DNA from: Siphonodentalium dalli
Taxonomy: Eukaryota; Mollusca; Scaphopoda; Gadilida; Siphonodentaliidae
Direction of reading: 5' to 3'
DNA length: 64,000 nt
NCBI GenBank assembly: GCA_032622095.1
Contig: CP136064.1
Span: forward strand, 3,778,280 to 3,842,279
Shown here: positions 29,052 to 55,834 of the stretch, in pieces
Position numbering within the stretch: the stretch's first letter is position 1
Layout: each line of letters opens with the position of its first letter
The notes under the pieces: generated by a model
Databases searched by the model: none
What the model was told of the DNA's origin: nothing
Seen by the model: only the letters and a program-made list of their open reading frames with translations
Made by a program: the position numbers and the translations under genes

Positions 29052-29309
29052 ACATCAGCCCCAGTATTTCGCTATATCGGGATTGCTTTATCGTTGGAGG
29101 TGGAAGTTACACCGGTGTCATGAGCCATAAGCCCCAGGTAGTACAAGAAACCCATTGTCAGAAATGGTAACGCCATCTAGATCATATTATTAGCATATAT
29201 AAATATATTGGAGCTTTAATGTATTGAGTGTGAAAAATGTCTGTATAGTTGAGTGTGTGTACTGATGATACCCACCCCAGTTGGCCCCCAGTTCAGGAAC
29301 GATAACTCT

Positions 29310-29395
29310 ATCCGACCTATACTCCGCAGTACTCCAGTCTAGACAGTTTGACCTACATTCTCTGCAGTACATGGAGTTTGACCTATATTCTCCGC
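29310..29395. repeat. Terminal iterons of the left TIR
   Basis: On the minus strand, TAGGTCAAACT occurs at two sites and TAGGTCGGA at a third, about 30 bp apart, each preceded by GCAGAGAATG, GCGGAGTA or GGAGAATA. The same array is kept at 55545-55635. Iterated sites this close to the ends of a protein-primed type element could serve replication initiation or end recognition, which is inference. Confidence 0.6.
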
Positions 29396-30130
29396 CCACG
29401 CGTCGGTTTATGATCCCCATTAGCATATTATTATACGGAAGGGATATTTTTGGCCGGACATGTCCAAACACGTTCGCCGCCCACGCATTCTCACGTCATA
29501 TACTACGAGTCATTATCGATTTACTCTGTGTCCACTCGGTGATGTGCTTCTGTATAAATTATCGATTAAAACGTGTCATGACACAGCCGCTTTCTGCATG
29601 CCAGTCGATTCGCTATAACACGTTCAGACTCGATCCACCATCTATAAATATATAAACACGTACGGACATGTTTGTTATATATAGCTTTTCGTCGACCCCC
29701 CCTCAGGTATATAAACGGTCGTTTCTTGATGTGATATCATAGATGGCTCAATGAAAATAGATACTACGAGGGACGTTTGATATAATGTGAGTATAAGTAT
29801 ATATTCTATACAAAATTGTTTTGAAATATGCAAATATAACTCTGTGTTTAAAACAACTAGTATATGGTGGTACATTGATAAATTCGCAAACGTGACAGGT
29901 AAACTTTATTTATAATCCCCAGCCTCATAAAATTAATATATACGAAATGTTTTAGTGTTTGCCGTAAAATTTGTGTGTGTTTGAACGCACCCCCCCACGC
30001 ATACAGTTATAAAATGCGTAGATCAAATTATAGTGAATAAAATATATATGTATACTATACCCTTTTTACACAGAATGGAACGAAATCCGATAAAACATTA
30101 ATCCGTTTATTATAGAAATTGTCAGGGGCG

Positions 30131-31662
30131 TTAATCCTTATTGTCCCCTTTCTTCTTCGGCGGCTCTACGTCATCGCTGTCCCACGTGCACGAAGTCATT
30201 GTCTTTTCCTCGTCGCTCAGCTCCCAATCGTCCCAATTGCTCATTTCGTCTTTTGGCTGGAAACAGAAGAAAAGACGTTCGGATTCAAAAAATAATTGTT
30301 ATACAGATACGAGTGATTAACGAAGGTGTGTCAATCTCGGGTTATCAATATCGTTCCTTACTATGTTAGGGCCAGTTATAATGATATATACTTACATCCT
30401 CATAGCACCTCAGCTCGCTATCGCCCCCATCTTCCCATTCGTCCCACGAACTCATTGCTGTTAACTGTAAACAGAAGACAAGGCGATAATGTCGAATTTA
30501 AATCGAACAACAATATAGATAATAAGAAAGTTCATTTTATTTATATGAAAAAATAATCGTTAATCTCCCTGAGAAATTGCTGCTTATGCTAGTTAGTGAG
30601 CGTCGGATTAAGAATAAACCATATTCGTTATTCCCAGCACTAAAATAAAAGAACGTGTATTATTTAGTTTTTTGATAACTTAATCAGCTTATATTATTTA
30701 CATAAATAAATCAGTATACTCACAGAATCCGTGGGGTCAACGTTTTCTTTGTCAGACTCCCCATGCTCCCACTCAATGGTGTTGGTGGGGGACTGAAATA
30801 AAAAATAAACATAAAAGTTATCGAGGAAAACCATTCCCTATATTTATAGAGTTGGAAAAAGTGAGTTACAAAATTAAAATATTTAATATCGCCGATTTGA
30901 AGCGTAATATTTTTTGTCAGTACAATGTTATGAATTCAATTGTGAAAGAAGGCGGTCGATACGACGACGTTGGAGTTAAGAATAAATTTTCATTTACCTG
31001 GTGTTCAAAAGCCGGTCAAAATTCGTCAGTAAACATTGCATGAAATTACTTGCGAAAAGTATTGACACAATCCACTTTTTATGTTTTTAAAGTTCAAATA
31101 TATAAGCTGTAATGTGTGTACTTACCGTATCTATATCACTTATTACTCTATCCTCATCCGGGGTAAATAATCTTTTTCTGATCTGTAAATAAAAAAACGA
31201 GCGCAAAAAATTACAAATATTAAGAGCGTGTCATATTAAAACAAAAGATAGGGGGGGGGGCGACACAGAATAGTAAAAAATATAGGCTTTACATGAATAT
31301 GTTATAAAAATCGTGTTCCAAGTAACTCGTCTTTCATTTAGCCCTCGGGTATAGTAAAGAGCGTTATTAGTTACTGTTTTCCCGATATGAAAATAATAAA
31401 GAGCGTTTGGGGTTGTGTAATTAAAAACCAATAAAATCGCACAGCTGACAGAAGACGAGTACACTATATAAATTGTTCGAATTCAAAAACAATACACAAA
31501 GAAATCCCTGGTTTCAACGAGTATGAATAATTCTCAAACGAACGCTACTATTGTCTTTAACTAAATATCATGTTCAATTTAAAATGAAATAAAAGTTATA
31601 TTTATACATACCATTTCCATCGTGGGTGTCTCGCCGTCTTTAATCGCGTTGGGTGTTTCCAT
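30131..31662 (-). CDS. TIR-encoded acidic Trp-rich protein, five exons (left copy)
   Basis: Exons on the minus strand are 31662-31612, 31182-31126, 30792-30724, 30464-30396 and 30256-30131. All junctions are GT-AG and all are phase 0, giving 123 codons and a TAA at 30133-30131. Exon 1 (METPNAIKDGETPTMEM) has two Thr-Pro sites. Exon 2 has RKRLFTPDED, an RxLF cyclin-docking-like motif beside Thr-Pro. Exon 3 has DKENVDP, a KEN-box-like motif. Exons 4 and 5 have acidic tryptophan motifs SSWDEWED, SNWDDWELSDEE and TWDSDD, and the end is PPKKKGDNKD. The protein is very acidic, lacks hydrophobic stretches and is probably disordered. A TATA-like TATAATATAAG lies at 31706-31696, and a polyadenylation signal at 30111-30106. 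The motif meanings are inference. I know no homologue. A copy exists at 54181-54813. Confidence 0.75.
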
Positions 31663-31695
31663 GTTTGAGAAGTTGTGCGGAGTGAAGAATTTCAC

Positions 31696-31706
31696 CTTAT
31701 ATTATA
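31696..31706 (-). promoter_or_regulatory. TATA box of left TIR gene
   Basis: TATAATATAAG lies 34-44 bases upstream of the ATG at 31662. It is conserved in the right copy (54137-54147). Confidence 0.6.
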
Positions 31707-32254
31707 CCCAGTAACTAATCATCGCCCCTATGCTTGACCCAAAGTTATAATTCACGTTACAGTATAATTACAACCGACGTGTGTTTCGCAAATTACGGTA
31801 CCAATTATGGCATTACCAGCGTCCGATGCTTTTGGTCATTTACATCCTACGACACGTTCGCAGCGGGGGTATTAATAGCGGGTATAGTTTGTAATGTAGT
31901 ATAATTGTCTTATTAGCATACTGCCGGACACAAGCCTGTCCGATAAAAGGTTAAATAACCCCCATGATTTGTTGAATAACAGATTATTTGGGGAGGGAAG
32001 ACAGATGTCTACTTTTAAACTTGACAGATATAACACGGTTTTGAATATTGTCAGCAAAATTCCTCGGTCGCCCAATTATAAAGAGGGGTCCACGTTTCCG
32101 ACCAATAAATTCACAATTTAGTTCATTTCAGAGATGACCGAGTACCGTAAGCCACAAACCACCACCCGCATGATACATCGCCGAAAAAAGATTACAAATT
32201 CTCCATGTAATACACAGTGTGAATTTTCATTATTGCTACCATTTAAGGAAACAT

Positions 32255-32890
32255 GCCCCCGATAGGGCTACTATGCGAACACATGTCTATATTAATTTCA
32301 CATATTCCTTACCGTTCATTCATATATACTCCAAGCTCTCTGTTAATACAGAGGCATCAAAACATTGGTCTGGAAAAGACCTACTATGTGGATGCGTTTA
32401 TACATATTTACTTGATGTATTCTTTAATTGTTCATTTCTCTTTATCATCGTTCATTTATAGTATTATTAGAAGAAATTTAGTCTAAAATCTCCATTACAT
32501 GGAGACAATAAAGAGCCCATATGGTGTAGACTAATGCATAAATACTTCATGTATTCTTTTCACCAATTATATGTATTGTACATCCTATACATTTAGTCTG
32601 TTATACAGAGGAAACAAAGCATGTACTACGTGGCAGTTTCATATGACGATAAGACCTACTATGTGAACACATGTGCATATTAATTTCACATATTCTTCTC
32701 AAAACGCTCTATTTTATACGGGGGGTATCAAACATTGGTCTGGAAAAGGCCTGCTATGTGGACGCGTGTATACATATTGACTTCATATATGTATTCATAG
32801 TTCATTTCTCTTAATTGTCGTTCATTTAATAGCATTATTAGTAGAAATATAGTCTAAAACCGTCGGTATATGGAGAATATATAGCGTCAA
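32255..32890 (+). repeat. ~390-bp tandem duplication
   Basis: CATATTAATTTCACATATTC near 32290 and 32675, ATTGGTCTGGAAAAG at 32364 and 32736, and TTCATTTCTCTT at 32429 and 32802 mark two diverged copies. Weaker pairs (CGCTCTTTAATGTATAGTTA at 33181, GCCCTCTACTATAGTTA at 33404) continue to 33470. No gene was seen in 32205-34250. Confidence 0.7.
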
Positions 32891-34249
32891 TACTGTTTTA
32901 TTGTTGGTAACTCAAATTATTGCATCATGTATCGCAACTAAACAAGCGAGATAACTAATAAATTCTTAATAGTTCTGATGTCTATGGCAGTTCACACAGT
33001 GTATATTTTCATTGTTGTTACCATTTTAGTGCATACATTACTGATTTCTGTGTAAGAACGCCGGTCTCCATTGTTGTTATGATTGTGCCTATAACTGTCC
33101 ATATTCTTAAAGCAAGTACGGTACCTCTATGTGATATGATCTATAAAAATTTCCATTTTCACAGGTAAATCACGTATAAACGCTCTTTAATGTATAGTTA
33201 AACTGAGTTTCACATGCAGGGCTATGTCTTTGTGGTCTATATCCGTGGTATACTTCAGTATATACACGAAGTGAATGTGTTCTAAGTATGCGTATCTGAT
33301 TTATGTATACGTCCGTGTTTCTTAAAGCAAAACCAATACATATTAGTGCGTTATATTATGATGTACATTAAGTGCCCTTTTCACTGTTAAATCAAGTAAA
33401 AAAGCCCTCTACTATAGTTAACTATTCAGTTCCACATACGCTATAAGCTCTATGGTGGTCCGGTGTGTCTTATCAATATGCCATTATATGCACGAATGTA
33501 ATGTGTTCAAATATGTGGGTTATGATGTATACTTTAATGTTAAAGTATATAAGCACTCTTTAAGATATGCATATGCAGAATGTTGCCTCTTTACACTGAC
33601 AGAAAAAAAAAGGAATATATAATTTTGAGTACTACTCTTCATAAAACGTTAGAAAACCATAATCTAACAACGAATATCGAAGAACAATGTAATTACTTGA
33701 TAAGCATTGTAAATATTTCGTCTGTTTTAAATAAAATGGAAATATTTCGTCTATTTGAAATACAGTTGGAAGCAACAATCAAGTATTTAAATGAAATTTG
33801 GACCAAAATCTTATAATTTGAGAAAACGTATATAATTTCTATCGAAGTCTTATAATAAAGGAAGGCTTTGTGCGAATCCATTCGGTCTAATGTGTGAATG
33901 TGTTCATCATCGCAAATATAATGATGCAGAAATGAATATTTCCTAGAAAAATGTTAACATAGCTTGTATTTAACCGAAATAATATAGCATTTGAGTTAAA
34001 ATGTTTCATATTAGGACCATAACGAACCAATGCATAAAAATACAATATTTTGTTTTTCATTCTCGATCAAAATAATGCAGAGTTGTCAATTATCAACAAA
34101 AAACAAATACTTTGAAACAAAAACGATGACATAAGAACGAATATCCAAGAGCTAGTGTGAAAATAACCCTCACATTTATAAAAAAAAACAATAAAAATTC
34201 AGTTTTCGAGTAAGTCCTTCAAAATTATTGAATGTTTTCGTCTATGTTG

Positions 34250-35480
34250 GATCAAATTTGACACAAAAATCAATTAGCTCACTAACAGTTCGCGCAATAT
34301 CTCATATTTTGAGAAAAAGTTTGAAATTTTAGACAACAATATTGCTAGTGAAGGTGAATATTTCATCCTGGAACTCATGAAATATGATAAAAATAGATGT
34401 AAAGACACTTCACGAGCCCTCATATCTTTGAGTTATGAACATAAAGTCATCTCATAGTGCCATTGTACCCCATAATTTGGGCAGGAGAAATATGTATTTC
34501 ATATTTGACCCTTCATCTATGGTAAAAAATGAATTAAGGGACATGGGAGTGGTGTCCTAGACATTAACCTAGAGCATAACTTGACTCAATTTTGCAATTT
34601 TAGGCAACATTCTTGCCAGGGAAAGTGTATATTTCATGTTGGAACTCATCAAATGTGATAAACATGCATCAAAAGACACTTACTGAGCTCTGATGACTTT
34701 GAGTTATGACAACAACGGCATCTCATACTAGATTGTTAGCCATAATTTGGTCAGGAAAAGTGTAAATTTCATATTTTATCCTACATGTGTTTTAACAATC
34801 AATGTAATTACACCCCATCGGTCGCCTAGACACAGCGTAAATGTTCTCAAGTTTTCAACTGTAGGCCACAATGTCGGCAGTGAAGGTAAACATTTCATGT
34901 TGGAACCCATGAAATGTGATAAAATGGATAAAAAGACACTTCATGAGTACTTATGACTGAGTTATGAACATAAAGGGAGCTCATAGTGTATTGTAGGTCA
35001 TAATTTGGTCAGGAAAATTGTAAATTTCATGTCTTAAGCTCCATGTGTTTTAAAAATATATTTAATTACAGCCAGGGGGTCCCTAGAGATCAATCCACAG
35101 TCCATATGTAGTCCATATGCAATTTTAGGGAACAGTATTGCTAGTGAAGGTGAACATTCCATGCTGGAACTCATGAAATATGATAAAAATAGATGAAAAG
35201 ACACTTTCTGAGGCCTTGGTCAGGAGAAATGTGTATTGTATTTTGACCCTTGATGCGTGGTAGCAATCAATGAAATTACACCCCATGGTATCCTCAGATA
35301 TGAAGCAACATCATAAATGCACTCAGTTTTGGCAATTTAGAAAACATTGTTGATAGGGAAGTTGTACATGTCATGTTGGAACTGGTGAAATGTGATAATA
35401 ATTGATCAAAAGACACTCGATGAGCCCTGATGGGTTTCAATTATGGTCATAAAGGCATCTGATAGTGTCATTATACAACG
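34250..35480 (+). repeat. ~265-bp satellite, ~4.5 copies, replacing the 3' end of the polymerase gene
   Basis: The landmark AAAAGACACTT with TGAGTTATGAACATAAAG-like sequence recurs at about 34404, 34672, 34931, 35198 and 35408, with intervening GGTCAGGAAAA and CATTTCATGTTGGAACTCAT. It begins immediately downstream (in the gene's sense) of the last recognisable polymerase exon. No palm-motif exon was found within or beyond it. Confidence 0.85.
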
Positions 35481-35626
35481 GGGAAATTTGTGAAGCGCTA
35501 ACAAAGCGTAGCTGAAAACAAAAAATAAAAATGTTTTTTTTTCATCCCGTACTCAATGATACCCCCGACCAAAAAAGGGAGGGGAGGGGGGGCGGCGGCG
35601 CTTTTCGTTTAAAAAAATATACTTAC

Positions 35627-38600
35627 GAATTGACGTATTCCGAGAAGAGTCCACCTTTCTTAGTAGCCTGATTGTATTGCGTGGTATCTGTCCAGTGATA
35701 TACTTCGTATATTTTCGTCACCACGTAACCCTTCTCTATGGCCTTCATTATCTCCGGCGTCGTCCACGTCCCTGTTATAGATCTCGCATCGGTTCCGTGA
35801 TCGCACGTCGTTTGTCTTTGATCTTCCGCGCATGATCGACACAAAGGAAAGGTGAGTTTTCCGTGAGATCTCAATGGCAATACGGGGTGGTACAATTTCC
35901 TCGGAGGAGAAACCTTCACCTTAGCCAGCCCGAAATATGCGCTGATATCTTTAAAGTCCTTAGTTATTATTTCAGGATGCCCTACTGGCATTTTGCCCGA
36001 TTTATTTATATAAGGATACAGGGACGTGAAATCGACGTATTTGATGCTCTCACGTGGGCCCGCGTCTTTGTATAATTTGCAGGCATTCGTCCTACCTAAA
36101 AAGATAAAAGATTTTTTTTTAGAAATAAATTTTATTTATTTTTATTTTATAAACTTCATTTTTTTTTTTTTTAAATATGGAAACTTACCTCCGAAGAAAG
36201 CATCTCGTGGCATAAGTCGAGGTTGTACATCCAGCTGCGACAAGAAGTCCCGCAGTATTTCATTTTTTTTTTTCTGCTCAGTGAATGTATGCTCCCAAAT
36301 GCATACATATTTGTAACCCGCCTTCTTCAAAAATTCACGCTTTTTGATGGTCAGTGTGTACAGTTGATTCAGTGTCTGTTTAGTCAGCGGGTGTTTGGAG
36401 ATGTGTCTGTTTCGTGGGTAACACGTCAAACAAGCGTGATGAAAACAACCTAAAGAAGAAAAAATACCGTTTATTGTATATGATCAATTAGGGGAGGATG
36501 GGACAACTGTTTTAAAATGATTATATGTTGTACTGGAGATGTGTCTCTGTTTCGTGGGTAACGTGTCAAACGAGCGTGATAAAAACGACCTAAAGAATAA
36601 AAATACCATTTATTGTATATGAACAATTAAGGGGGGATGGGATAAATGTTTTAAGATGATTATACGTCGTACTCACCGTGAAATTCGTAGCAGGTGTTGG
36701 TCTCCTGACAATATCCATCCACCTTGTACTTTGAATTTGGTACCTTGAATTCACCGCGGTTCAAAGCGTGTTGTATGTCTCTATTTTTATTGTGGGCCAA
36801 CCAGGACAACCATTGGATGGAGACGTTCGAATATTGGTCCTTGTCACCGTAAAACCCGTTAGGAACTTTGCCTATAGGCGTACTAATGAATTTTTCATCA
36901 GTAATTTCAATTCCAGACTCCTCGGCCGTATCCCGTTCTACCCAATCATCACCGAGCAATACTCGCTCTTTATCATTCAATTTCTTCAGCAAACTGGTTT
37001 CTGATTGATCAGAGTTAGTGAGAGTTATAGAATAAGTTTCTTCCAAGAACAATATTTTATAGGCCTTCATGCACGCAGAAGATATCGTTATCGACATGAA
37101 AGGATCTACCTTATTCTCGGTAACTTTCAAAAACAATGACCGAAACTTCAAACAAGCCTGACGCAAGATATCAACGTCAGAAATGCAGTAAGCCAATAAT
37201 TCTTTCTCTAAATTGAAGATTTCACCGGCTTTAGTTTCGTGCCAACGTAGAAACGCCTCCCTGTCTGTCGTCGACATGGTGTCAGCTCCGTAATACGTTG
37301 AATCGGGATACGGCCCCTCATACAGTCGGTTCTCCTTCCTATTGAAGAAATGAGGGAAATATCCTGAAATAAAATGTTTAAATTTAATATTTAAAAACAA
37401 ATGGAAACGATATATATATATTATTGAAGAAATGGGGGGAAATATCCTGAAATAAAAATTTAAAGAATGTGTCAATTTAATATTTTAAAAACAAATATAA
37501 AAAAGAAATGCGTATACCTTTTTTTAGTTCCTTCAAATCGAAAGCCTTCGGGAGAGCAGCCAATCGCATCGTCAGAAAATTTAGTGAATCTATTATTCGA
37601 ATCCCATGGTGACCTAGCATGTACATGACCTTCGATCCAGAATAAATAATTTTGCTAGGCCTCATCCCCTGGAAAACCATGTATTCCAGCAACAATATAG
37701 CGTCGTAAGCCTTGTTGTTATGAGCCAATACCGTGGCGTTTTTATGGTGTTTAGTAAACAGCCAGGTTCCGAAGTTCAGTAGAGTGTCCGAACCAGACGC
37801 TATGTACTGTCTTCTCCCGCACGTGTCGCTACACGGTGTCTTTTTGTAATCGCCTTCTTTATCCAGGCTACCGCAATGATCGCATCGAGTACCGCAAACG
37901 TCGCAAGTCGAATCTGAGTTCACCGGCGAGTCCAAACAAGAGTCGCAGGCTGTTTGGGCCACCACCAAATTGGGCTGATGTCGATTTAATCCGCACGCCG
38001 GTCGTTTACAGTTTAAGCACCTAAAAAATGAAACAAATTTGTTTAGATTACTGCGGGTTGGTGAGACGCGGGTACAACAATTAATTTTTCGTTCAGCATA
38101 AAATAAATTACTTACCGGCGACATTGACTGCATCTTTCCGCTTCACTGCACGTAGAGCAAGGGAGTCCCATTTTGTATCCACCGTCACATAGGTACACCT
38201 CATCTTGTGAACATTCAAAGTCGTAGAATATGAACTTGTTGACATCTTTCACTTTCTGTTTCGGAGGTCTCAAATAACAGAGGTGACCCGGAAGTACCCA
38301 TTCCTTACAAGATGAACAAGACCATTCGCCGCAAATGTGGGGTATTTCTGCCAGATCCCTCTTCGCACGATTCATTACGCTTCCACACTCTTTACACTTC
38401 AAATATTTACAGCAATTGGATAGTTTATTATCAGGTGCCTCTTTGTGTCTTTGGTAACAGTTCAAAGATCTACAGTCCATATTACAATCGTGGCACGTTA
38501 ATAACTTGCCCATTAATAAAGGGTCAATCAAACACCCCTCTGTTTTGCATACTATGCAATATGACGTGCAGTTATGTTCATCTTTCTGGTCGAAAGGCTT

Positions 38601-39782
38601 TAAACAATTTTCACAAAAGTAAGATAGGCCGTAGAATCCTGAAACGCTGACTATCGGTGTGTAGTGGTCCTGATTATGATACAGATATATATTTCTGTCA
38701 TAGGTGTTGCTGACTCTGGATACTTTTTTTCCAATTTCGCCGCATATGATTATAATATTCACCTTGAATAATGATTCATACTTTGGTAGGTCGGCGTATG
38801 ATCCCGGTCGGTCGGCGGAAATACATAAATCTTTAAGCAGAGTGTTTGCTAACACTTTTTGGTCATTTCGTCCTTTATCCCGTAGGTGCTTATAATAGGC
38901 TTTCGTCACTTTACCGTGTTTTAGAAAAATTTCGAGCAGTGATAATCCGGGATAAGACGATTTAAGATCTTCGGAAACTGTACTAATCTTGGCCATCGCG
39001 ACGCCTATAGCTCTAGGCAAACAGGAGTTGTCAGTATTGTGGATGAAGACTGTTGATTTTTTGTCCAGAAGTGATTTGTCACCGTCGATAGGAACTCCAC
39101 CGCCTGAGCCACTGGGTTGCCTCAGTGATCCTACTGTTATTCGAAATGATCGGTCCAAGTCAATATGTTCGTGCGATGTCAGCACATTAGCTATTTTGTC
39201 GATAATCAACTGAGAATTCAGGTCCGACCATGCCGTTAACGGTACTATGATGGGTTTATCCAACTGATCGGTATGAAGGATAACTCTTCCCAGATCATTG
39301 TCTGCCAAATCACCTCTCGTCGTTCTTAGTATATGATCGAACATGTTGGTAAGGCGTTCCGTCAAGTCTGACAACAGTTCACCGCGCCATTGATGGTCAA
39401 ATTTCACGTCGTATATACTTTCCACAGCCGATGACCTCATGAATGATTTTATTTCACGAAGATTGATCGTGTAGGACTGATTAGCCGTCTGCCGAGTTTG
39501 CTCATCGTGACTAGTGTCGAGAGTAACTTCCTGCGGTTCATTCCGTCCCGTTAAATCTAGAGCGGATGACTGTTGAGCGGCTCGGGATGAGTCCTGTGGT
39601 TGAGACGGTGCGGGGTTTGGCCCGTCATTATCGGGCGACTGCTGTCTACCCTCCATATATATCAATCTGTCATATATATTTCTGTCTGTGTCGGACATTG
39701 AGTCCACTCTCCCGGTGATGCCTCTTAGAAAGTCATCACTACTAAATCCCTCGGCGTGCAATTCATCGATTAACCGCTCCAT
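35627..39782 (-). CDS. Protein-primed-type family B DNA polymerase, five exons, C-terminally truncated
   Basis: Minus-strand exons are 39782-38116, 38020-37518, 37363-36677, 36449-36189 and 36095-35627, all GT-AG with matching phases, about 1195 codons. Residues 1-110 are hydrophilic. A conserved N-terminal region (HNTDNSCLPRAI, ~247-259) precedes Cys/His zinc-ribbon segments (389-502, ending CGEWSCSSCKEW). The 3'-5' exonuclease follows: Exo I FYDFE (~519), a Cys-rich insert, Exo II HNNKAYD (~655), and Exo III YCISDVD (~782). Next comes the family's nuclease-like stretch YEFHG-CFHHACLTCYP with YVCIWEHTF (~950-1030), then FGGRTNA and polymerase motif A DFTSLYP (~1065). The sequence stops at a donor after GLFSEYVNS. 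Motifs B (KxxxNSxYG) and C (YxDTD) are absent, so polymerisation should be impossible as seen. In intact relatives this enzyme replicates the element from a protein primer. TATA box at 39835-39828. Confidence 0.9.
36395..36650. repeat. ~137-bp tandem duplication of a polymerase exon edge and intron
   Basis: 36395-36535 and 36536-36670 are near copies. Both contain the exon-4 acceptor and its first codons (GTGGGTAACRYGTCAAAC, RAGCGTGAT). The upstream copy (higher coordinates) is out of use in the spliced model. Confidence 0.88.
37335..37500. repeat. ~80-bp duplication of the third polymerase exon's acceptor
   Basis: GAAGAAATGAGGGAAATATC plus CTGAAATAAAA at 37343 recurs as GAAGAAATGGGGGGAAATAT at 37425, again copying an acceptor and exon start. 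Confidence 0.85.
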
Positions 39783-39835: not shown

Positions 39836-39854
39836 GCAACTCGAAATCACTGTG

Positions 39855-42425: not shown

Positions 42426-42545
42426 TTTAATTTTAAATTAATATATAATTTCAATTGTGTTTTAAAATATACAATTGACATTTATTCTGAATATAAAAAC
42501 TTGTAAATATCATTGTTAAATGTATAATAGAGACAATAAGGGGGC

Positions 42546-43929: not shown

Positions 43930-43982
43930 GTTGAAACTGTTTTGGATCGAGTCCTGTCCGGCTACTCTTCTATAACCTCTCA

Positions 43983-44232: not shown

Positions 44233-46540
44233 AGTTCCAAAGATATAAGGAGAATCACTGCATTTTAATTGCATACCGCATCCATCGTGGTGCTGTTTTG
44301 TGTTCAAGTGACAACCTTACCATGGTGTTGGAAATTACTGCAGTGTAATACCACAGCATTACCTGGGTAACACCACGTTAGAGATGGTCAATTACTTTAA
44401 GTATATGCAGGTTTGAAATCATCATGCTTGGGAAAGGCTGCCCTCTATGTTCTTATAAAAAAGCGTCACTTTGACCTAATCTGACGAAATACTGGTAGTG
44501 CTACAATCAAGATAACTTCAACCCACAATTCTGGGCGTAAAGTCCATTATAGAAGAGTATCGGGATGGGACTCGGTCCAAAACAGCATCAACCCAACCGA
44601 TACCACAAGTTGTGGACAGGGAAAACTTGGTCTAAACAGGTACTAGTACATGCATGTATTACAAGCATTAAAGGGTACACTAAATCCGGCCATTTATGAG
44701 ACCATCTCCTTGTATACTCAACAGAATATATGCAACAAATGAATGTGCTCTATGTCTAAGCCACATTAAGCTCCTTGTACAGATTACTTGGTGATACAGC
44801 AGGTTGACAAAGATAAAGGAACATCAGAATATTTTTATACTGTGATGGATTTTAAGGCCTGTATGTGTGTACATGTACATGAATCTGATTATATTGACAT
44901 GCTGCAATAATGTGTCACTTGAAGTGATGTGAAACACTCCAATAGGGTGATAAAATATAAATGGAGAATAATCTTGTTAAAAGTAGTACTTTTTACAAAC
45001 ATTATATCCAAATTAACAACACACACCATCATTCGTATACATAATTAAATGCAGTAACTATCAAAGGCGAACTCGTTTTCGTTATATTATCGCCGATAGA
45101 TGCGCCCCGAATCGAGTAGTAAATATTCACAATTGAGCGTAGTTCAGACAATGTTTTCTATGGAGTATTACGGTTGATTTGCTTTCGATTTTCGGCTATG
45201 TTAGTAGAATGCTACCTTATTCCAGTTGGCATAGCGCCTTGGTACTAACTGATCAGTTCCACGCACCAGAACAAGTGCATAATATATCTTTAAAAGTTCA
45301 TATCCTTCAGACAAGCTCAGAAACAAGGCTTGAGACTGATCCATGGGTACTGTTGTGCTTTGTGTAGAGATATGAAACTGTTACACCTCCAAATTCTGGT
45401 CAATGTAGTATGAAGTACGGTATAACAAAGGTTATGCATACACTGGATGCCATAGTGCACATTTTCTGAGACTCATACAGGTACATACAGAAGCATACAG
45501 GTACATGTATGTTGTAGAATTGAATTCACTAACTTCACTTGCCAAGATTTTCACCACTAAGTCTGATAAAATGTAGACGTCACTGATCGGTCTCCATCAA
45601 GGAAGGAATTGATGTGTCATTTTTGCCTTTGATGAAGACATTGGTCATCATTTGGTTATATATTAAAGCCTCCCCTTCGCTGCACAGTACTGGATTCAGT
45701 GCATACCGTCCATTGGCATACATATGGTACATGTATATAGCCAGGACTGTCACAAAGCAACAACTCACATTATGTCATGCATGGACGAATACCGATAACA
45801 TCTAGATTACATGTATCCGTTACATGTACACCGAATAACATTTGAAATCCTTCCTCATCCAGTCCTGGACAGAATTAATAATATTGGTATCAAGGGTAAT
45901 CATTATCTGCAAGAAACACTCAGGAAACATGATTCTATGATTGGTTGTCAGATATCATGCCTTGAATGAAATGTGTATGTCTCAATCCAGTCAGGCAGCT
46001 CCTCCTGTCTGAAAAATAAGATTTGAATGCTTGTAATGACATCAGAAAAGCGGAATGACTAATCATGTACATATTATTAAGATGTACGGTCCAAATTAAT
46101 CACCCGGGGGGGGGGGGGGGGAGGGGCAGTTATAACAGTAATGTTATCCATTCAAACGCTGCATGTTGGTCAGAATCAGCTACAAATACATATATTTACA
46201 TACTAAGTGTTGTCATCACTAAATCCAGCATACTGATTGGTCGGCGCCCACGTGGCTAGTTGCAGTTATTTCTCGGTGAATGCGCAACGGCTCATAACAC
46301 CAAGCTCACAACACCATACATACGTCATTGGGTTTGGAAAAACGAACGCGTAATGTTTTGGGAGCATTTGGACTCGCGCAGGATTGACTTAATACATCAT
46401 CTGGTTGCAATATGAAGAGAAATTGTTCCTATTAACTTTTGCCAAGGGTGCTATTGGGTACTTTGGGCTGTTTTTTGTCACGATACACTATTCAATTTAA
46501 ATACATTTACAAAAGTGGCTTTTTCGCTAAATGTATATAA
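44233..46540. other. No gene seen
   Basis: AT-rich DNA with a poly-G tract at 46107-46122. ACATGTACATGTA-type palindromes recur (44870, 45500, 45720). None of the short open frames has splice context or a familiar motif. Confidence 0.4.
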
Positions 46541-46544
46541 ATAT

Positions 46545-46703
46545 AAGGATTAACTGTCATGTGGACTATTTTAATGGAGATGTAACCGTGAGGAAAGTGG
46601 TCATAACTTGTATGTAAAACCCTTTGGGTTTTACACAAGTTATGTCCACTTACCTCACGGTTACATCTCCATAAAAACAGTCCACATGACAGTTAATACT
46701 TAT
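46545..46703. repeat. 159-bp palindrome
   Basis: TTAACTGTCATGTGGACTAT…ACCTCACGGTTACATCTCC, arms of ~75 bp meeting at AAACCCTTTGGGTTT (46618-46632). Confidence 0.92.
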
Positions 46704-47354
46704 GTACATATACTAGTAGCATATACCGTTGTAACAGGATACCTCCCCTTAAATATCTCCCCACTAACAATACCCACATGAATGACTAAAATAAAATTTC
46801 ACTCATTTGATATGTTACTTGAACAAACAAAATTAAATAAAAAACAAACGTAAATCTCATAAAACATCTTTTTCGGGCCATTTCATGGTCAAATGATATC
46901 AAAAGGGTGAATTTTCTTTTAGTCAAAGATTGGGGGAATGTCAGGGAATTACAGTAATGCCCAAAGTAAGTGACCACTTAACCTCAGGATTGTGGGTAAT
47001 TTTTCAGGATTTATTCAGAAATATGGCTTGTGTGGTCTCACACCAGAAACTTCTAACACAGCAGTACTAGAAAGGTTACCGCTTCAACACTGCACCAAAT
47101 CGGTTGATATTTATGTAAAATATACGAAGCAGACTAGGTGTTATGTATTGCTCTGCGTACCTATTTTTCCATGTACCTAAAAATAAGTCAAGCCCTGTTC
47201 CATGTGTGAGGTATGGCTACATGTATACTCAAAGTAATTGGCCACCTCTTAGTATAGTGCCCCCGTTAATACTGCAGTATTAAAGATATATAAAGCACAG
47301 TAACCTCCAACACCTCATTATGGTTACTAGTACAGTTTCAACGTTGCATATACC

Positions 47355-47475
47355 ACAGTTACACCCCATATGCATGTTGTCATGTCACACCCCATATGCA
47401 TGTTGTCATGTTACACCCCATATGGCATATGCATGTTGTCATGTTACACCCCATATGCATGTTGTCATGTTTCGC
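47355..47475 (+). repeat. 26-bp tandem repeat, ~4 copies
   Basis: TTACACCCCATATGCATGTT plus GTCATG units; one unit contains an extra GCATAT. Confidence 0.9.
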
Positions 47476-48654
47476 ATGCATGAAAATAAAATGCAGTGTT
47501 TTTCCTCCTATCTGTGGAACGGATGGCCTTCGTTACATGTACATGTATATATTATTCCAAATATAGGACATGGGAACGCTGATAGAAAAATTGTATTGTA
47601 TATACGGGAGTTAAATGTAGCACATAATGAACTTTTAAGTTGCCAACATTGTTTAGGCTGTCAATTTATAAACTCCACCCATCCATGTTGTCAGGCTGCA
47701 TTGATTGGCATTACACAAACAAGCATGAAAAGATAATTTAGTGATTCATCTTATTCATGCATATATAAGTTCATTGAACAAGATCCATGTGGCTGTTTTA
47801 ATTTTCAACTTTTGGTGCGATATTTGTTGGTGTATCATAACTGCATGATGCTCCACAACAGTAATCGACTTGATACCGTGGTGGATATCATATACTGCCC
47901 GTATATACTGCGATCATTACCAGGTATCCCCCCCGGAAAACAACTGCGGGACACAACGTACCGGGGGGTGGGGTGGTACTTAGGCGTAAAAAATTTACAT
48001 GTAAATTTTTTCCTTATTCATTTAGGGGGGGGGGGGGGGTTGTCGGAAAAAATTTGCATGTAATATTTTTCCAAATATGTATTTTCAGACTCACAACTTC
48101 AATTTTCTCTCATTTTATAGAATATGGATTAACCTTAATATCCAAATCATATATACATGAGTAATACAATCCACATAAAACAATTTTGGATAACCACTGT
48201 CTTGGTGTACATGTGATATTGACCCCATTAACCCTCTTAATAATGCCAACTATGTCAGTGTCTACCAGTCGATTGCAGAATTCTACCCTGCGATCGCTTA
48301 TCTGGCAAATTTTTACTGCAGAACTATCCCATGTATTAAACAATTTCTCCTCCAATGGTATCAGAAAACAGTTATATGCTGGTATCTCACTCATCTCATT
48401 TGCATCTTTTTCAAAGTCGAGGTAATGACTAGTTGTCATTTTTTAAAGTGCATACATAGCGTTGCGATCACCAATATACATGTTTGTACATGTCATGACA
48501 TCACGAGGTACAAATCTGCGTTCTACTGGTAGACAATGACCATTTTAGTCACAATAATCTAAACTAAGTTAACAAGCACCTTCTCGTGAATTGTATGCTC
48601 CGGTGTTTTTTTCGCTTTCCGGTCAAACCGAGTTGTTGTCCGGCTGCGGTAGAT

Positions 48655-48815
48655 TTGATTTGGGGGGGGGGGGCGGGCAAATGGTCAGTGGAAAAAAACT
48701 GCAGTTTTTGCTGTTTTGGGGGGGGGGGGGGATACCCAAACCGAAGAAAACAGTTTTTTCCACCCTGTGTCTGCAGTTTTTTTCCGCCCCACCCCCCTGC
48801 CCCCCCCCCCATTTT
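48655..48815. repeat. G/C-tract hairpin element
   Basis: Outer G12-13 and C11-12 tracts bracket inverted GTGGAAAAAAACTGCAG (48689) and CTGCAGTTTTTTTCCGCCC (48771). Several overlapping open frames with poly-Gly/Pro are artefacts. Confidence 0.8.
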
Positions 48816-49254
48816 AAGGTCCATAATTTTGAGGATAGCAGTATATACATGTATTGGTGACAATGTACAAATATTCATCTGCATGGTAGCTATACATGTA
48901 GATTATAAACTCACCACTGGTATTTTGGCGAACAGACTTCCAGTAATATTTCACCTGTCATTTGTTCATTGCCACGTGTCTAGCTAGACAGGACCGACGC
49001 TTAGACTAATCATGGGCGAAATCAATCTTCATATGTTGAAGATGAGAGGGCATGATGCCGCATCCACCATGGCTAATGAATCTGGTATTTCTGTAATTGA
49101 AGAAAAAATACATGTACATGTATGCTGCATATATATGTATGTGATATGGATGCATGTATTTTCATAATTTGCAAACATATTCAAAAACCAAGTGTAAAGT
49201 TCATTCTTCCAACAATATTAGCATTTTCGGCGATTCAGATGTCAGAAGACCATA

Positions 49255-49820
49255 ATTCAATCGTAAGTGGAGGAATCGGGCCTGACAAAATCATGGATAG
49301 TTTGTTACGATGTCATCGCAGATGAGAATATTTAATATCGGTGGTTAACCACGTGATTAACTATCCTATGATATTTCTATTTACTTTGTACGATTTTTAC
49401 GTACACGCAAATTTCACCAAGTGGAGGTAACCAAGGATACGTCACAATTTTTGCAAATCTGCATTGATATAACTCGTGATCATGTCGTGAGCATGCGCAG
49501 TCCAACTATCGGTTATTACCCAAGATGGGAATCTGTCCACTTACAATTGAATCGTAGTCATATGAATCATGAATGTTCACTCAGTGAACGTACAGATGAA
49601 AGATATAATCTTAAGTGGAGGAACCGGGATCGACGAGATCGTGGATAGTTTGTTCACACGATTACGATGTCGTACATGATGAAATCACAGTTTTTTTGTA
49701 AAGCATGTGATTGACTATCATGCGATCCTTCAGGCCACACTTTTTACATACACATGACTGATTAGTGATTACGTCGCAAATGGGGATAACCAAGGATACG
49801 CCACAATTTCGCTTTTAAAT
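49255..49820 (+). repeat. ~350-bp diverged tandem duplication
   Basis: AAGTGGAGGAATCGGG (49265) recurs at 49613, and GGATAACCAAGGATACG-like sequence (49428) at 49785, with the same order of intervening motifs (GTGATTAACTATC, TTTTTACGTACAC). Confidence 0.75.
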
Positions 49821-51660
49821 AAAACAGTGCATGATATTATTTTTTACCTACTTACCGGTACAATTGTATCGTGGTAATCTGAACGTTCACTTAGTGTTAA
49901 ATTGGCCATGGCATGACAATATTAAAGAGATTGTGGGAATTCTATCAGATTGACTATCTATCTATCTACTCGATACTCCATCGCCCTCAATGTGCTGAGG
50001 ATTATGTGGAGGTCCAGGTGCTACCACGGCCGAGTAACTTTATAACCCTGTGGTGACTCCAGTAGCGTTCTTTAACGTGCACACACTGAGGCGTGTACAC
50101 GGGTCAGCCATTAATGTCCGCGTCCGATCGGACAGCGTACTGAACCCACGACAACATACCTGGACAAGTGTTGTAATGGGGGGAAGTCGGCATTTTTGCA
50201 TTCGGATCTTTATTCAGTGATCTCGAATGAGACTTTTCAGCCTGACAAACTTGTATCTGACCGAGTTCTGATTTTTGTCAGAATACCCTGACCACGTTAC
50301 GATCCCCGGTCCGATAGCACGAGAGACCAGTACGCTACCTGTCGGCCACCGACTTCCCTTGACATTTGTTAGAATAATGGTATGAAGTATAACTGATCAT
50401 AACTGACAATTTCCTTATAAGCTACATGTATATTTTCAATAAATGGTACCTTTTTATTTTCCAACTATTGTCATATTAATGTCGACCGATAATACACTGC
50501 ATTTATGGCAGAATTTGATTTTGCAGACGAAAATAGCCATTCCCGGATAGTTTTTCTTTTTATGTAGCATAAAATTTAGGCCAATTTATAATTCATTAAA
50601 AATCGTTTTTGCAGTTGGGAACGCAGTTGGGAATATTGTGTAGGGCTACCTTTATATATGAATCATAAATGCCATATAATCATAGTCCGTCAGAAGTTAC
50701 TATTTTGACAAAAAAAATGTTCATTTATCAATGACGGATTCCATTTTCTGAAATATTACACGGAAACAAAATTAGGCCGATTTACTATCAAATTTCATTT
50801 GAATAAAATGGATAATTCGTGCCCTTTTAATTGTAGTTCGATTAAATATTTTACTAGTAACAGTCTGTTCATAATGAGAAATCACTTCAATTGATTACTA
50901 ATTAGTTTCACTTACCTAAAATCCGATCAATTTGTATCCTATGAAAACGTACGATGGACGTAGTTTTTTATCCACGAAGCCTCGATCTGAGCCGGTAGGT
51001 AAAACAATAGGAATGCTTTTGCCCCTGTTGTAAAGTGGAACGAAATTACACGCTCAAATTTGTAATAATAAAAGTTCAACGAAGCAATAGATTGATAAGG
51101 CCACCACCAACAGGAACGTGGAGACAGGGTGATTGAGGTGTATATATCCCAAACAGTTCTAATAATTAAAAATTTCATGACTGCCACATTAGTTGTAAAC
51201 TTCACACCATATAAGAGCACCCCCACCCCCTGGAATACGGAATAATACCACTTAACACAGAGGGTGGAATACGAAATACCAGTTAACAGCCATATGGATA
51301 AATTCTCTATTGTCGTACGAACGCAGGTCATAATGTCCATGTCTAAAATGATATAAATTGATGATCGACGATCTGTATGTCAAACCGTGCATTTATTGTG
51401 ACAAACATCGCATTTATATTATTCTTATGATCATTTTTTTTGGAAGGTTGGAATACGAATACCGGTATTTTTGGAATACCGAATACCTCCTAACAGAGGG
51501 GCCGGAATATGTCGTACCTCGTAACAGGGCATGGAATACGGCGTACGAAATGGGGGGGGGGGGGGCTCTTATACCGGGTATGACATACATAAAAAACACA
51601 CTCACAACGCTGTTGAAGGGGGGGGGGGGGGGTGTCTGTGCAACCTTTGTTTATTAATTT
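49820..51660. other. No gene seen; remnant repeat at 49950-50370; poly-G tracts
   Basis: 49950-50370 has a GC-richer block (CTCAATGTGCTGAGGATTAT, AACGTGCACACACTGAGGCG, GAGAGACCAGTACGCTACC) that looks like a dispersed repeat seen in other molluscs, which is inference. 51190-51560 contains a partly inverted GGAATACG-rich segment with G tracts at 51552-51564 and 51619-51632. Confidence 0.4.
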
Positions 51661-51664
51661 AACC

Positions 51665-53110
51665 CTTTCATAACGGGAGTTAGGCTGGTGCAGCATTAAG
51701 GACGCTGTTTGTATTAAACATTTATCATGGTCAGTGTATGCATTTTAAAACACAGGGCAAGTTAGATTACATCATTTAATTGATATTCTAGTTAAAATAG
51801 TCTGTGAAACTACTTTAAAACCACATGTTATGCACCCTGTTTTGCCAACCAAACTATGAAATATAGATATGTTATTTGTTTTATTATCAGAGAAAAGCAT
51901 TCTGCAAAGATATGGCCTTATACATGTTATAAACATGCAAATAGTGGCTTCATTTGGCCTTTCTACCATCATTTAGAGAGTCAAATCTGAAGAAATTCCC
52001 TTAGTTTGATATTTATGATTCCATAATCCCATGAAATGGTATTTAAAACCTCAAATGTCAGTATTTCCTATCAGATGGACATATCAACTAATAAATTAAA
52101 CATTTCCCATGGTCATTACATGCATTTTTAATATACAAGGCAATGTAGAAAACATCATTTGATGGATATTTTACTTAAAATAGTCAGTGGAAACTACATA
52201 AAAGCAATATTGTATGCATCCCTGTATAGCCAAATCAAATTAAACTATGGATATTGTATTGTTTATTTCATCTGAGACATGTATTCTGTTCAGATATAGC
52301 CTTATATATGTTATAAAGATGCCAATAATGGCATAATTTAGGCTTTTTTTCCATAATTTAGAGGGTCAAAGCTGAATAAATTCCCTTATTTCAAATTTGT
52401 AAGATGCCAAGCCAGCTGAAATGGTATATCAAACCTCAAATGGCAGTATTTCTTATCAGATGGACATCTCTACCAATAAATTAAACATTTTTCATGGTCA
52501 TTGCATGCATTTTAATATACAGGACAAGGCAGAAAACATCATTTGATGGATATTTTACTTAAAATAGTCTGTGGAAACAACCTAAAAGCCATGTTGTATG
52601 CATCCCTGTATAGCCAAAACAAATTAAACTATGGATATTTTATTGTTGATTTCATCAGAGACATGTATTCTGTTCAGATATAGCCTTATATATGTTATAA
52701 AGATGCCAATAATGGCATAATTTAGGCTTTTTTTTCCATAATTTAGAGGGTCAAAGCTGAATAAATTCCCTTATTTCAAATTTGTAAGATGCCAAGCCAG
52801 CTGAAATGGTGTATCAAACCTAAAATGTCAGTATTTCTTATCAGATTGACATCTCTACCTATAAATTAAGCATTTATCATGGCCATTGCATGCATTTTAA
52901 TATATAGGACAAGGCAGAACACATCACTTGATGGATATTTTACTTAAAATACTTTGTGGAAACTACATAAAAGCCACATTGTATGCTTTCCTATATAGCC
53001 AAATGAAATTCAACTATGGATAAATTGGATATTTTATTGTTTGTATCATCAGAGACATGCATTCTGCTAAGATATAGTCTTTTGTGTATTATAAACATAC
53101 AATAGGTGCA
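51665..53110 (+). repeat. 384-bp satellite, four copies
   Basis: CATGGTCA…GCATGCATTTTAA landmarks at 51725, 52109, 52493 and 52876 are 383-384 bp apart. Copies 2 and 3 are the most alike; copies 1 and 4 are diverged. No coding potential. Confidence 0.93.
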
Positions 53111-53457
53111 TGGCCTCATTGGGCTTGCTTTCATAATACAAGAGAGTCAACTCTGAAGAAATACCATCGGTTTGAAATTGGTAGCATCTTCCATCCTTAT
53201 ATAAGAGGGGTATATACCAGCTTGAAGTACCTGTTTAATTAATAGGTTCAATGCAAGGGGCCACCAGAGAGGTTTGTCTAGTTCGGGATGGTGTGGCAAA
53301 CCACCAACTGGAGATTTCAAGGGAGGCCTCCTCAATGGCGACCCACTATATTGTGCAAACAAAATTTTATTAAAATTGTATAAAGGTCAGCAATCCCTAA
53401 GAGCATTGAGAAATAGATAAAAACACTTACTGACAGATTGCCAATAACAAAATTACA

Positions 53458-53748
53458 GCTGTTGAAACTATTGTCATGTAAACAAAACTGTTACAGTGAT
53501 TTGTCAACAAATATATAATTCTAGCTGTATTATTAGTTCAAATATTTAACTATGAATAACATTTTCAGAATATTTAATCAACAGGTTGGACCTTTTCCAA
53601 TGTTATGTAAACAAAACTGTTACAGTGAGTGACTTGTCAACAATTATATAATCCTATAGCTGTAGTATTACATGTAGTTCAAATATTTAAGTATGAATAT
53701 GAATTTCAGAATATTTAATCAACAGGTTGGACCTTTTTCAATGTTTAC
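53458..53748 (+). repeat. ~145-bp tandem duplication
   Basis: ATGTAAACAAAACTGTTACA at 53476 and 53613; AACAGGTTGGACCTTTT at 53580 and 53721. Confidence 0.9.
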
Positions 53749-53824
53749 CATAACATTTTTATCACAATTTTGCTATCGTTGGACTTTTACAGTTATTCCA
53801 TTACAGCAGTAATTTGTACATAAC

Positions 53825-54132
53825 AATTAATTCTTGGTTTAGAAATATTTTCTTTAAGTATTTCTTAACTTAGAAAAAAAATCTTGAAACAAGAAATATA
53901 TATTTAATTTTTGAAGCCATTTTCTTAGTAAGGAAATTGTTTCTTGTTTCAAGACTAAAATCTATCTTATTTGAGAAAACTATCTCTTGACTGGTGGGAG
54001 TTTCTTAAATTTTCTTGATGTAGCAGACTTGGGGGGTATATTTCCCAAAATAAGATTTATTTTCCTGTTTCAGGAAATAGTTTTTCTTGTTTCAAGATAT
54101 TTTATCTTATTAAGAAATTATTTTTGGCAGTG
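53825..54132. repeat. Right subterminal array of the 12-kb insertion
   Basis: TTTCTTGTTTCAAGA-type units (53940, 54085 and others) mirror 41893-42425, ending at ATTTTTGGCAGTG. Confidence 0.75.
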
Positions 54133-54180
54133 TGGGTATAATATAAGGTGAAATTCTTCACTTGACACAAAACTACAGAC

Positions 54181-54813
54181 ATGGAAACACCTAACGCATT
54201 TAGTGACGGCGAGACACCCACGATGGAAATGGTATGTATAAATATAACTTTTATTTCATTTTAAATTGAACATGATATTTAGTTAAAGGCAATAGTAGCG
54301 TTCGTTTGAGAAAGATTCATACTCGTTGAAACCAGGGATTTCTTTGTGTATTGTTTTTGAATTCGAACAATTTATATAGTGTACTCGTATTCTGTCAGCG
54401 GTGCGATTTTATTGGTTTTTAATTACACAACCCCAAACGCTCTTTATTCATATCGGGAAAACAGTAACTAATAACGCTCTTTACTACATCCGAGGGCTAA
54501 ACGAAAGACGAGTTGCTTGGAACAAGATTTTTATAACATATTCATGTAAAGCCTATTTTTTTTACTACTGGTCCCTAAAATAGTAAGGAACCATATTGAT
54601 AACCCGAGATTGACACACCTTCGTTAATCACTCGTATCCGTATAACATTTGTTTTTTGAATCCGAACGTCTTTTCTTCTGTTTCCAGCCAAAAGACGAAA
54701 TGAGCAATTGGGACGATTGGGAGCTGAGCGACGAGGAAAAGACAATGACTTCGTGCACGTGGGACAGCGATGACGTAGAGCCGCCGAAGAAGAAAGGGGA
54801 CAATAAGGATTAA
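54181..54813 (+). CDS. TIR-encoded acidic protein gene, right copy lacking exons 2-4
   Basis: Exon 1 is 54181-54231 (METPNAFSDGETPTMEM, donor GTATGT) and the last exon is 54688-54813 (acceptor TTTCCAG at 54681-54687; SNWDDWELSDEE; TAA 54811-54813). Both flanking phases are 0, so direct splicing of exon 1 to the last exon would keep the frame and yield 58 residues. This short product would lack the RxLF and KEN-like motifs but keep the Thr-Pro sites, one acidic-Trp module and the Lys-rich tail. Exon 1 differs from the left copy at two residues (FS for IK). The last exon is identical at the protein level. The TATA box is at 54137-54147, only five bases from the end of the 12-kb insertion, so its natural upstream region has been displaced. 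It could be a pseudogene or a variant isoform. Confidence 0.65.
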
Positions 54814-55544
54814 CGCCCCTGACAATTTCTATAATAAACGGATTAATGTTTTATCGGATTTCGTTCCATTCTGTGTAAAAAGGGTATAGTATACATATAT
54901 ATTTTATTCACTATAATTTGATCTACGCATTTTATAACTGTATGCGTGGGGGGGTGCGTTCAAACACACACAAATTTTACGGCAAACACTAAAACATTTC
55001 GTATATATTAATTTATGAGGGCGGGGATTATAAATAAAGTTTACATGGCAAATTTGCGAATTTATCAAAGTACCACCATATACTAGTTGTTTTAAACACA
55101 GAGTTATATTTGCATATTTCAAAACAATTTTGTATAGAATATATACTTATACTCACATTATATCAAACGTCCCTCGTCGTATCTATTTTCATTGAGCCAT
55201 CTATGATATCACATCGAGAAACGACCGTTTATATACCTGAGGGGGGTCGACGAAAAGCTATATATAATAAACATGTCCGTACGTGTTTATATATTTATAG
55301 ATGGGGGATCGAGTCTGAACGTGTTATAGCGAATCGACTAAGCATGCAGAAAGCGGCTGTGTCATGACACGTTTTAATCGATAATTTATACAGAAGCACA
55401 TCACCGAGTGGACACAGAGTAAATCGATATTGACTCGTAGTATATGACGTGAGAATGCGTGGGCGGCGAACGTGTTTGGACATGTCCGGCCAAAAATATC
55501 CCTTCCGTATAATAATATGCTAATGGGGATCATAAACCGACGCG

Positions 55545-55635
55545 TGGGCGGAGAATATAGGTCAAACTCCATGTACTGCAGAGAATGTAGGTCAAACTGT
55601 CTAGACTGGAGTACTGCGGAGTATAGGTCGGATAG
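55545..55635. repeat. Terminal iterons of the right TIR
   Basis: TAGGTCAAACT at 55558 and 55589 and TAGGTCGGA at 55624, as in the left TIR. Confidence 0.6.
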
Positions 55636-55834
55636 AGTTATCGTTCCTGAACTGGGGGCCAACTGGGGTGGGTATCATCAGTGTACTAATGTGTTTATGT
55701 GTATAGCATGTGCTTGGTGAGAAAGCATATGAACACATTTTAAAAATCGTACGTGCCAAACTAAAGTTATGATAATTATGAAACATGTACACATTGCATT
55801 GATCCACCAATATATTATTGGTTATGAACAAATG

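What the first reader, a model, noticed from the sequence alone, without database searches (positions are those of the whole stretch)
29261..55682. A minimal virus-like element: PolB plus tandem PC4, with a spliced gene in each long TIR
The sequence shows long TIRs, a protein-primed-type PolB, a PC4-like gene and no recognisable integrase, ATPase, protease or capsid. Polintons normally carry all of these and have short gene-free TIRs. Either this is a reduced derivative moved in trans, or a lineage of self-replicating linear elements distinct from known Polintons and adintoviruses.
Basis: partly seen in the sequence, partly recalled or inferred. Interest (0 to 1): 0.88.

Follow-up and report, generated by a model that had tools for sequence, protein, structure and literature searches.

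The report
Mirror-ended defective copy of a Polinton
This stretch is a damaged, mirror-ended copy of a virus-like mobile element (a Polinton) that occurs many times in this animal genome; complete copies carry unusual transcription genes, and the mirror-ended copies look like the defective genomes that adenovirus-type replication leaves behind.

Summary
The anatomy is real, but it is not a minimal lineage. The window copy (29263-55680) has long inverted ends, a spliced PolB, a tandem PC4-like gene and a 6-bp target duplication, GTGTAC. It is one rearranged member of a multicopy family. Four complete copies read in the same genome are 14.0-14.3 kb with short TIRs (130-154 bp in three, about 125 bp with a gap in one). 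They encode PolB, a packaging-ATPase candidate, capsid candidates, an rve integrase, PC4 and a TATA-binding protein (TBP). In the window, 41893-54132 is an insertion absent from 20 of 20 fetched stretches, and PolB is cut off inside intron 5. The long TIRs are the PC4-side end present twice; the ATPase-to-TBP block is missing. Four other mirror-ended loci were found: three PC4/PC4 and one reciprocal INT/INT. Of nine loci with both ends read, eight have exact 6-bp duplications. Three junctions examined show 4-7 bp microhomology. Best reading: copy-back defective genomes made during protein-primed replication and integrated in trans. A seven-intron PolB and an element-encoded TBP are unusual; my full-text searches found no Polinton TBP. 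Verdict: new variant of a known kind.

The parts
29257..29262 (.). left 6-bp target duplication GTGTAC
55681..55686 (.). right 6-bp target duplication GTGTAC
29263..32205 (+). left arm of the mirror (PC4-side end of the element); 30764-31270 is of the L015/L018 type
54133..55680 (-). right arm, outer part
41439..41892 (-). right arm, inner part, cut off from the outer part by the insertion; 98.9% to L012
31612..31662 (-). TIR gene exon 1, predicted (right arm copy 54181-54231, +)
31126..31182 (-). TIR gene exon 2, predicted (left arm only)
30724..30792 (-). TIR gene exon 3, predicted (left arm only; no match at the cut-off in other fetched copies)
30396..30464 (-). TIR gene exon 4, predicted (left arm only; no match at the cut-off in other fetched copies)
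30131..30256 (-). TIR gene exon 5, acidic Trp-rich C-terminus (right arm copy 54688-54813, +)
38116..39782 (-). PolB exon 1: N-terminal part with possible vOTU-like residues (NSCLPRAI, DHYTPI), zinc-binding-like Cys pairs and exonuclease motif YDFEC
   Evidence: no Pfam match
37518..38020 (-). PolB exon 2
   Evidence: Pfam sub-threshold 0.0012
36677..37363 (-). PolB exon 3
   Evidence: Pfam 8e-9
36189..36449 (-). PolB exon 4
35627..36095 (-). PolB exon 5 with motif DFTSLYPY; the gene then ends inside intron 5 at 35510
   Evidence: Pfam 1.1e-12
40390..40902 (+). tandem PC4-like gene, 170 aa
   Evidence: low-confidence model
41893..54132 (.). 12.2-kb insertion in the right arm, ends CACTGCCAAAAATA...TATTTTTGGCAGTG; not part of the element
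32206..35509 (.). stretch not shared with complete copies; ~265-bp repeats; origin unresolved

Best explanation
The window copy is a defective, mirror-ended derivative of an animal Polinton. Shown: complete 14.0-14.3-kb copies exist with short TIRs and both gene halves; mirror-ended copies of both polarities exist; three junctions examined sit at short microhomologies; most loci with both ends read have exact 6-bp duplications. Inferred: the complete element replicates outside the chromosome as linear DNA with protein-primed ends. A nascent strand switches template at a few bases of homology and copies back to the same end, on its own molecule or on one of another subfamily, which gives a genome with two copies of one end. 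Both ends still serve as origin and as integrase substrate, so the product is replicated with help from complete elements and inserted in trans. The window copy later received a 12.2-kb insertion and other changes at 32206-35509. Further inference: the element's TBP, PC4 and acidic TIR protein help recruit host RNA polymerase II to its genes.
For: Complete copies: L021/L029, L027/L032, L009/L031, L025/L030. Mirror copies: window, L018/L019 (arms 3286 bp, 99.5%), L017 and L033, INT/INT copy at C6:118.372-118.381 Mb. Exact 6-bp duplications in 8 of 9 both-end loci, 4 of the 5 mirror-ended. Microhomology GAAA (L018), TCTCAC (L017) and CCCGGTG (L042). Arms of different subfamilies in the window and L017. 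Complete copies share the terminal variant between their two ends, as end-to-end copying would give. Integrase: Pfam rve 5.8e-11.
Against: No extrachromosomal DNA, transcript or replication was observed. L033 has no matching duplication. The L018 junction was found at one place only (1 of 40 scored of 126 candidates), so spread of a derivative as a unit is not shown; the L017 junction search did not complete. Repair inside the chromosome could give some of the same structures. The window's own mirror junction is obscured by 32206-35509.
Confidence: 0.6

Rival explanations
1. Rearrangement after insertion: break-induced replication or gene conversion between the two TIRs of an integrated complete copy overwrote one end with the other.
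For: The short TIRs give inverted homology at both ends; such an event keeps the target duplication; the L018 junction is at one locus only among the scored hits.
Against: It must also remove the block between and rejoin at a microhomology; both polarities occur; L017 has two different terminal variants, one at each end, flush with its duplication, although the complete copies read share theirs.
Confidence: 0.22
2. Assembly artefact: fold-back reads or misjoined repeats made false mirror structures.
For: L033 is a near-perfect palindrome (3 mismatches in 2543 bp) without a matching duplication.
Against: Four of five mirror-ended loci have exact 6-bp duplications with different flanks; the arms of the window and of L017 differ at many sites.
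Confidence: 0.06
3. A separate lineage of minimal PolB plus PC4 elements with long gene-bearing TIRs.
For: The window copy alone looks like this.
Against: Its core is 98.3% identical to L010 and L011, stretches of the same family; four continued copies carry the capsid-candidate/integrase half, and 23 of 40 scored ends have a capsid-candidate gene inward.
Confidence: 0.03
4. An ordinary internally deleted Polinton.
For: ATPase to TBP are missing from the window copy.
Against: The INT-side terminus is also missing and replaced by a second PC4-side end.
Confidence: 0.05

Closest known systems
Polintons / Mavericks and adintoviruses of animals
   Same: PolB of the same family, rve integrase with a weak chromodomain match, TIRs, 6-bp target duplications, gene content of a capsid-encoding element (candidates). 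PMC11071296 (passages) defines adintoviruses by PolB with an OTU-like domain, hexon and rve integrase with chromodomain.
   Different: PolB split by seven GT-AG introns, a TBP gene, a tandem PC4 gene, a spliced acidic gene beside one TIR, and no protease match among 52 of 79 listed ORFs.
Defective copy-back / symmetric genomes of adenovirus and hairpin derivatives of linear plasmids such as kalilo
   Same: One end duplicated in mirror image, expected from protein-primed replication. The adenovirus case is recalled; for kalilo I saw only the title of a cited paper (Vierula and Bertrand 1992) in the reference list of PMC11071308.
   Different: Here the derivatives are integrated in chromosomes with 6-bp duplications, and both polarities occur.
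Virus-encoded TBP of giant DNA viruses
   Same: A virus-borne TBP; PMC12085832 and PMC11464507 (one passage each) describe it in large DNA viruses.
   Different: Those are large genomes; this is a 14-kb integrating element in which I found no RNA polymerase gene among 52 of 79 listed ORFs.

Membership tests
Polinton/Maverick (complete copies) | protein-primed-type family B DNA polymerase | tested here: met
   Family membership by Pfam DNA_pol_B_2 and 49 relatives; protein priming itself was not tested
Polinton/Maverick (complete copies) | retroviral-type (rve) integrase | tested here: met
   PF00665 5.8e-11; Ty3 integrase 7.4e-6
Polinton/Maverick (complete copies) | terminal inverted repeats | tested here: met
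   4 of 4 copies, about 125-154 bp
Polinton/Maverick (complete copies) | 6-bp target duplication | tested here: met
   4 of 4 complete copies exact
Polinton/Maverick (complete copies) | packaging ATPase | tested here: inconclusive
   GATKSGKT P-loop in 17 loci; Pox_A32 16.1 bits, below the 22.8 cut-off
Polinton/Maverick (complete copies) | double jelly-roll major capsid and penton proteins | tested here: inconclusive
   Candidates by place, size and recalled resemblance; no Pfam, PDB or phage-record match
Polinton/Maverick (complete copies) | adenovirus-type cysteine protease | tested here: not met
   No protease family at E<=0.5 in 52 of the 79 listed ORFs; a spliced or divergent gene could be missed
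Polinton/Maverick (window copy alone) | integrase, ATPase, capsid genes in the same copy | tested here: not met
   The ATPase-to-TBP block has no match in the window copy
Copy-back defective genome | one terminus duplicated in mirror image, the other lost | tested here: met
   5 loci, both polarities
Copy-back defective genome | template-switch junction at short homology | tested here: met
   3 of 3 junctions examined, 4-7 bp; the window's and L033's junctions not resolved
Copy-back defective genome | dependence on a helper for replication and integration | not testable with these tools
   Inferred from missing genes plus integrase-type duplications

The most novel reading that the evidence does not exclude
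An animal Polinton that behaves as a nuclear linear virus with its own transcription start-up kit (TBP, tandem PC4, acidic spliced TIR protein). Its protein-primed replication throws off mirror-ended defective genomes of both polarities, and these are integrated back, so that the host chromosomes keep a record of its replication errors.
Probability: 0.45. Interest if true: 0.78.

Novelty: new variant of a known kind. Interest (0 to 1): 0.62.

Why it matters
How Polintons replicate in animals is inferred rather than seen. Integrated mirror-ended copies of both polarities, with target duplications, would be genomic evidence for extrachromosomal protein-primed replication and for integration in trans. 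A 14-kb element with its own TBP and PC4 and a seven-intron polymerase gene points to nuclear transcription under partly its own control, which is not in the usual Polinton gene list. It also warns that a single copy can look like a new minimal element.

Tried and rejected
Rejected: a distinct minimal lineage; the C3:70.58 Mb inverted pair as a further mirror copy (no termini in L038/L039); C9:13.62 Mb likewise (no termini in L040). Led nowhere: viral-contig scans with the first PolB ORF, the capsid candidate, the integrase and a PolB alignment; protein searches with the PC4 ORF and the first PolB ORF; PDB search with the first PolB ORF and the capsid candidate; phage-record search with the capsid candidate; Rfam scan; PC4 structure model of low confidence (mean pLDDT 46), so no fold search was made. 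The tree of the outer arms is distorted by the indel in the arms and is not used. A first microhomology reading at L042 (CCCCCGG, my note) was corrected to CCCGGTG. Structure prediction of the capsid candidate was not sent, because fetched genome loci are not on that tool's list. Genome searches with the PC4 ORF, the first PolB ORF, the TBP family and the L017 junction did not complete.
Full report
WHAT IS IN THE WINDOW. The window is C4:3778280-3842279 of a 2.23-Gb genome in nine contigs. Inverted ends lie at 29261-30376 / 55682-54567 (98%) and 31271-31710 / 54567-54133 (93%); the left arm has about 0.9 kb that the right arm lacks. Other copies fix the terminus: 20 of 20 fetched stretches L009-L028 hold an end that starts TGATGATA, with different flanking DNA. 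That puts the window copy at 29263-55680 (26418 bp), between two copies of GTGTAC.

GENES OF THE WINDOW COPY. PolB runs on the minus strand. DNA_pol_B_2 matches 36660-37475 at 8e-9 and 35623-36135 at 1.1e-12. The open frames are separated by GT-AG introns with consensus sites; for example, CACG|GTGAGTACG ends exon 3 and TTCTTTAG|GTTGTTTTC starts exon 4. Relatives such as P0002 read straight through the places of introns 2 and 3. In the window the gene ends inside intron 5 at 35510. In L018 it goes on through introns 5-7, and motif C is split by intron 7. The 170-aa ORF at 40390-40902 has two PC4 stretches. Over 23 hits, the window included, it has no frameshift or internal stop, and variable sites fall 9/5/17 on codon positions 1/2/3. 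The TIR gene has five predicted exons, all in phase 0, encoding an acidic chain rich in Trp. At 90% coverage exon 1 had 22 hits without a frameshift, exon 2 nine, exon 5 sixteen of which two are frameshifted, and exons 3 and 4 matched the window only.

THE INTERIOR IS LARGELY NOT ELEMENT. 20 of 20 fetched stretches match up to window 41892, and none matches anything inside 41893-54132; the arm's 54133 follows directly. So 41893-54132 is an insertion. Its ends are CACTGCCAAAAATA...TATTTTTGGCAGTG, with an apparent 2-bp duplication (TG) against the site in L009. Such ends recall CACTA-type transposons (recalled, not tested). The stretch 32206-35509 is also absent from complete copies and holds ~265-bp repeats.

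COMPLETE COPIES. Continuing inward from four ends gave the other half: a PX-like small protein, a capsid candidate (426-aa frame), a penton candidate, an rve integrase (PF00665 5.8e-11) and a TBP, followed by the other terminus. Sizes are 14015, 14055, 14234 and 14326 bp. The TBP matches PF00352 at 6.7e-15 in two stretches, and human TBP over residues 4-154 at about 3e-14. The packaging-ATPase candidate has GATKSGKT but only a sub-threshold Pox_A32 match. The names capsid, penton and PX rest on place, size and recalled resemblance; no library confirmed them. No protease family appeared in a Pfam scan of 52 of the 79 ORFs listed for L021/L029. TIRs of the four copies are 132 bp (100%), 154 bp (99.4%), 130 bp (98.5%) and about 125 bp in two pieces (95-97%); the two ends of a copy share its terminal variant nearly or fully. 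Three more ends (L015, L020, L024) run into the capsid candidate.

HOW MANY. The TIR search scored 40 of 1113 candidates; the capsid-candidate search scored 40 of 298, the full-length hits at 99-100% identity. Both are capped. Of the 40 scored TIR ends, 23 have a scored capsid-candidate gene inward in the right orientation; seven belong to the four PC4/PC4 mirror loci; ten have no scored partner, and one of those (L027) does have the gene by sequence in L032. Damage exists. Internal stops occur in 4 of 21 hits of PolB exon 1 (two with a net frameshift), 1 of 11 of the ATPase candidate, 1 of 4 of the penton candidate and 1 of 4 of TBP; the capsid candidate and the integrase have none in 4 of 4 each.

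MIRROR-ENDED COPIES. L018/L019: 14017 bp, arms 3286 bp at 99.5%, lacking capsid candidate to TBP but keeping PX and ATPase. L017: 8792 bp, inner arms 99.2%, outer arms 90.8%, two different terminal variants. L033: 6824 bp, a palindrome with 3 mismatches in the 2543 bp compared and a loop of about 88 bp. C6:118371759-118380779: the reciprocal form, 9021 bp, with inverted capsid-candidate genes 866 bp apart, 226 of 226 bases identical beside the junction, the PX-like gene in the loop and the same terminal variant at both ends; its interior was not read further. Microhomologies are GAAA (L018), TCTCAC (L017) and CCCGGTG (L042). Exact 6-bp duplications: 8 of 9 loci with both ends read; the failure is L033. 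The L018 junction was spanned by its own locus only, 1 of 40 scored hits.

HOW IT MOST LIKELY WORKS. Integrase-type duplications on forms that lack the integrase gene fit insertion as a unit with an enzyme supplied in trans. Two like ends, short microhomologies and both polarities fit copy-back during protein-primed strand displacement. The window and L017 combine arms of different subfamilies, so switching between co-replicating genomes is likely. The main rival, repair inside the chromosome, cannot be excluded without alleles. The transcription part is weaker. TATA-like words (TATAAAW or TATAATW) lie in the 130 bases upstream of 5 of 9 genes (TIR gene, PC4, PolB, TBP, PX; not the capsid, penton, integrase or ATPase genes), against 18.6% of 5502 background windows; binomial P about 0.014, with the words chosen after looking.

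AGAINST WHAT IS KNOWN. PMC11071308 (passages) describes TP, vOTU and polymerase domains in Polinton PolB; the first window PolB ORF has NSCLPRAI and DHYTPI at residues 252 and 372, a resemblance only, with no Pfam match. PMC11071296 (passages) defines adintoviruses. PMC6431247 (passages) gives Polintons as typically 15-25 kb. PMC10120064 (passages) states that endogenous viruses of its survey do not contain introns, with one exception dealt with separately. PMC12220804 (passages) reports 5-6 bp duplications and group I introns in protist relatives; PMC11244446 (passages) reports adintovirus insertions in a protist. Searches for Polinton with 'TATA-binding protein' or 'TBP' listed five papers. 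In the three whose passages I read, the TBP belongs to giant viruses or to other repeat elements with mirusvirus-type capsid genes; PMC10132985 and PMC7786948 I saw in the listing only. Polinton with PC4 listed none. Polinton with 'defective' and 'palindrom' listed eight, and Polinton, Maverick, nonautonomous and TIR listed nine, all seen as listings there. Subscription journals are mostly outside that library, so absence there is weak evidence.

Noticed in passing
8133-9248 and 11618-12775: Another pair of long inverted repeats (87%), spanning about 4.6 kb outside the finding.
   Followed up: no
1511, 15686, 20357, 23442, 24418, 25845, 26057, 58699: Eight copies of a short, nearly palindromic repeat (AGGCCAATGCATTCTCTTATATATGCGAGGCGACC...), probably a small fold-back element.
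   Followed up: no
503-1418; 15976-16213: Tandem arrays with 22-bp and 48-bp units.
   Followed up: no
41893-54132: A 12.2-kb insertion with CACTG...CAGTG ends and an apparent 2-bp duplication inside the element's right arm.
   Followed up: partly
L029 4316-8433: Next to the integrase-side end of copy L021/L029 lie long open frames (395 and 791 aa) without a Pfam match; the element seems to sit in another coding repeat.
   Followed up: no
36396-36673 (PolB intron 3 area): A partial duplication of the exon 4 start region within intron 3, also in L016 and L018.
   Followed up: no
L040 (C9:13621050-13622400): The ~265-bp repeats of window 34182-35472 occur here in inverted arrangement between two PC4-side matches, so they may belong to another rearranged form.
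   Followed up: partly
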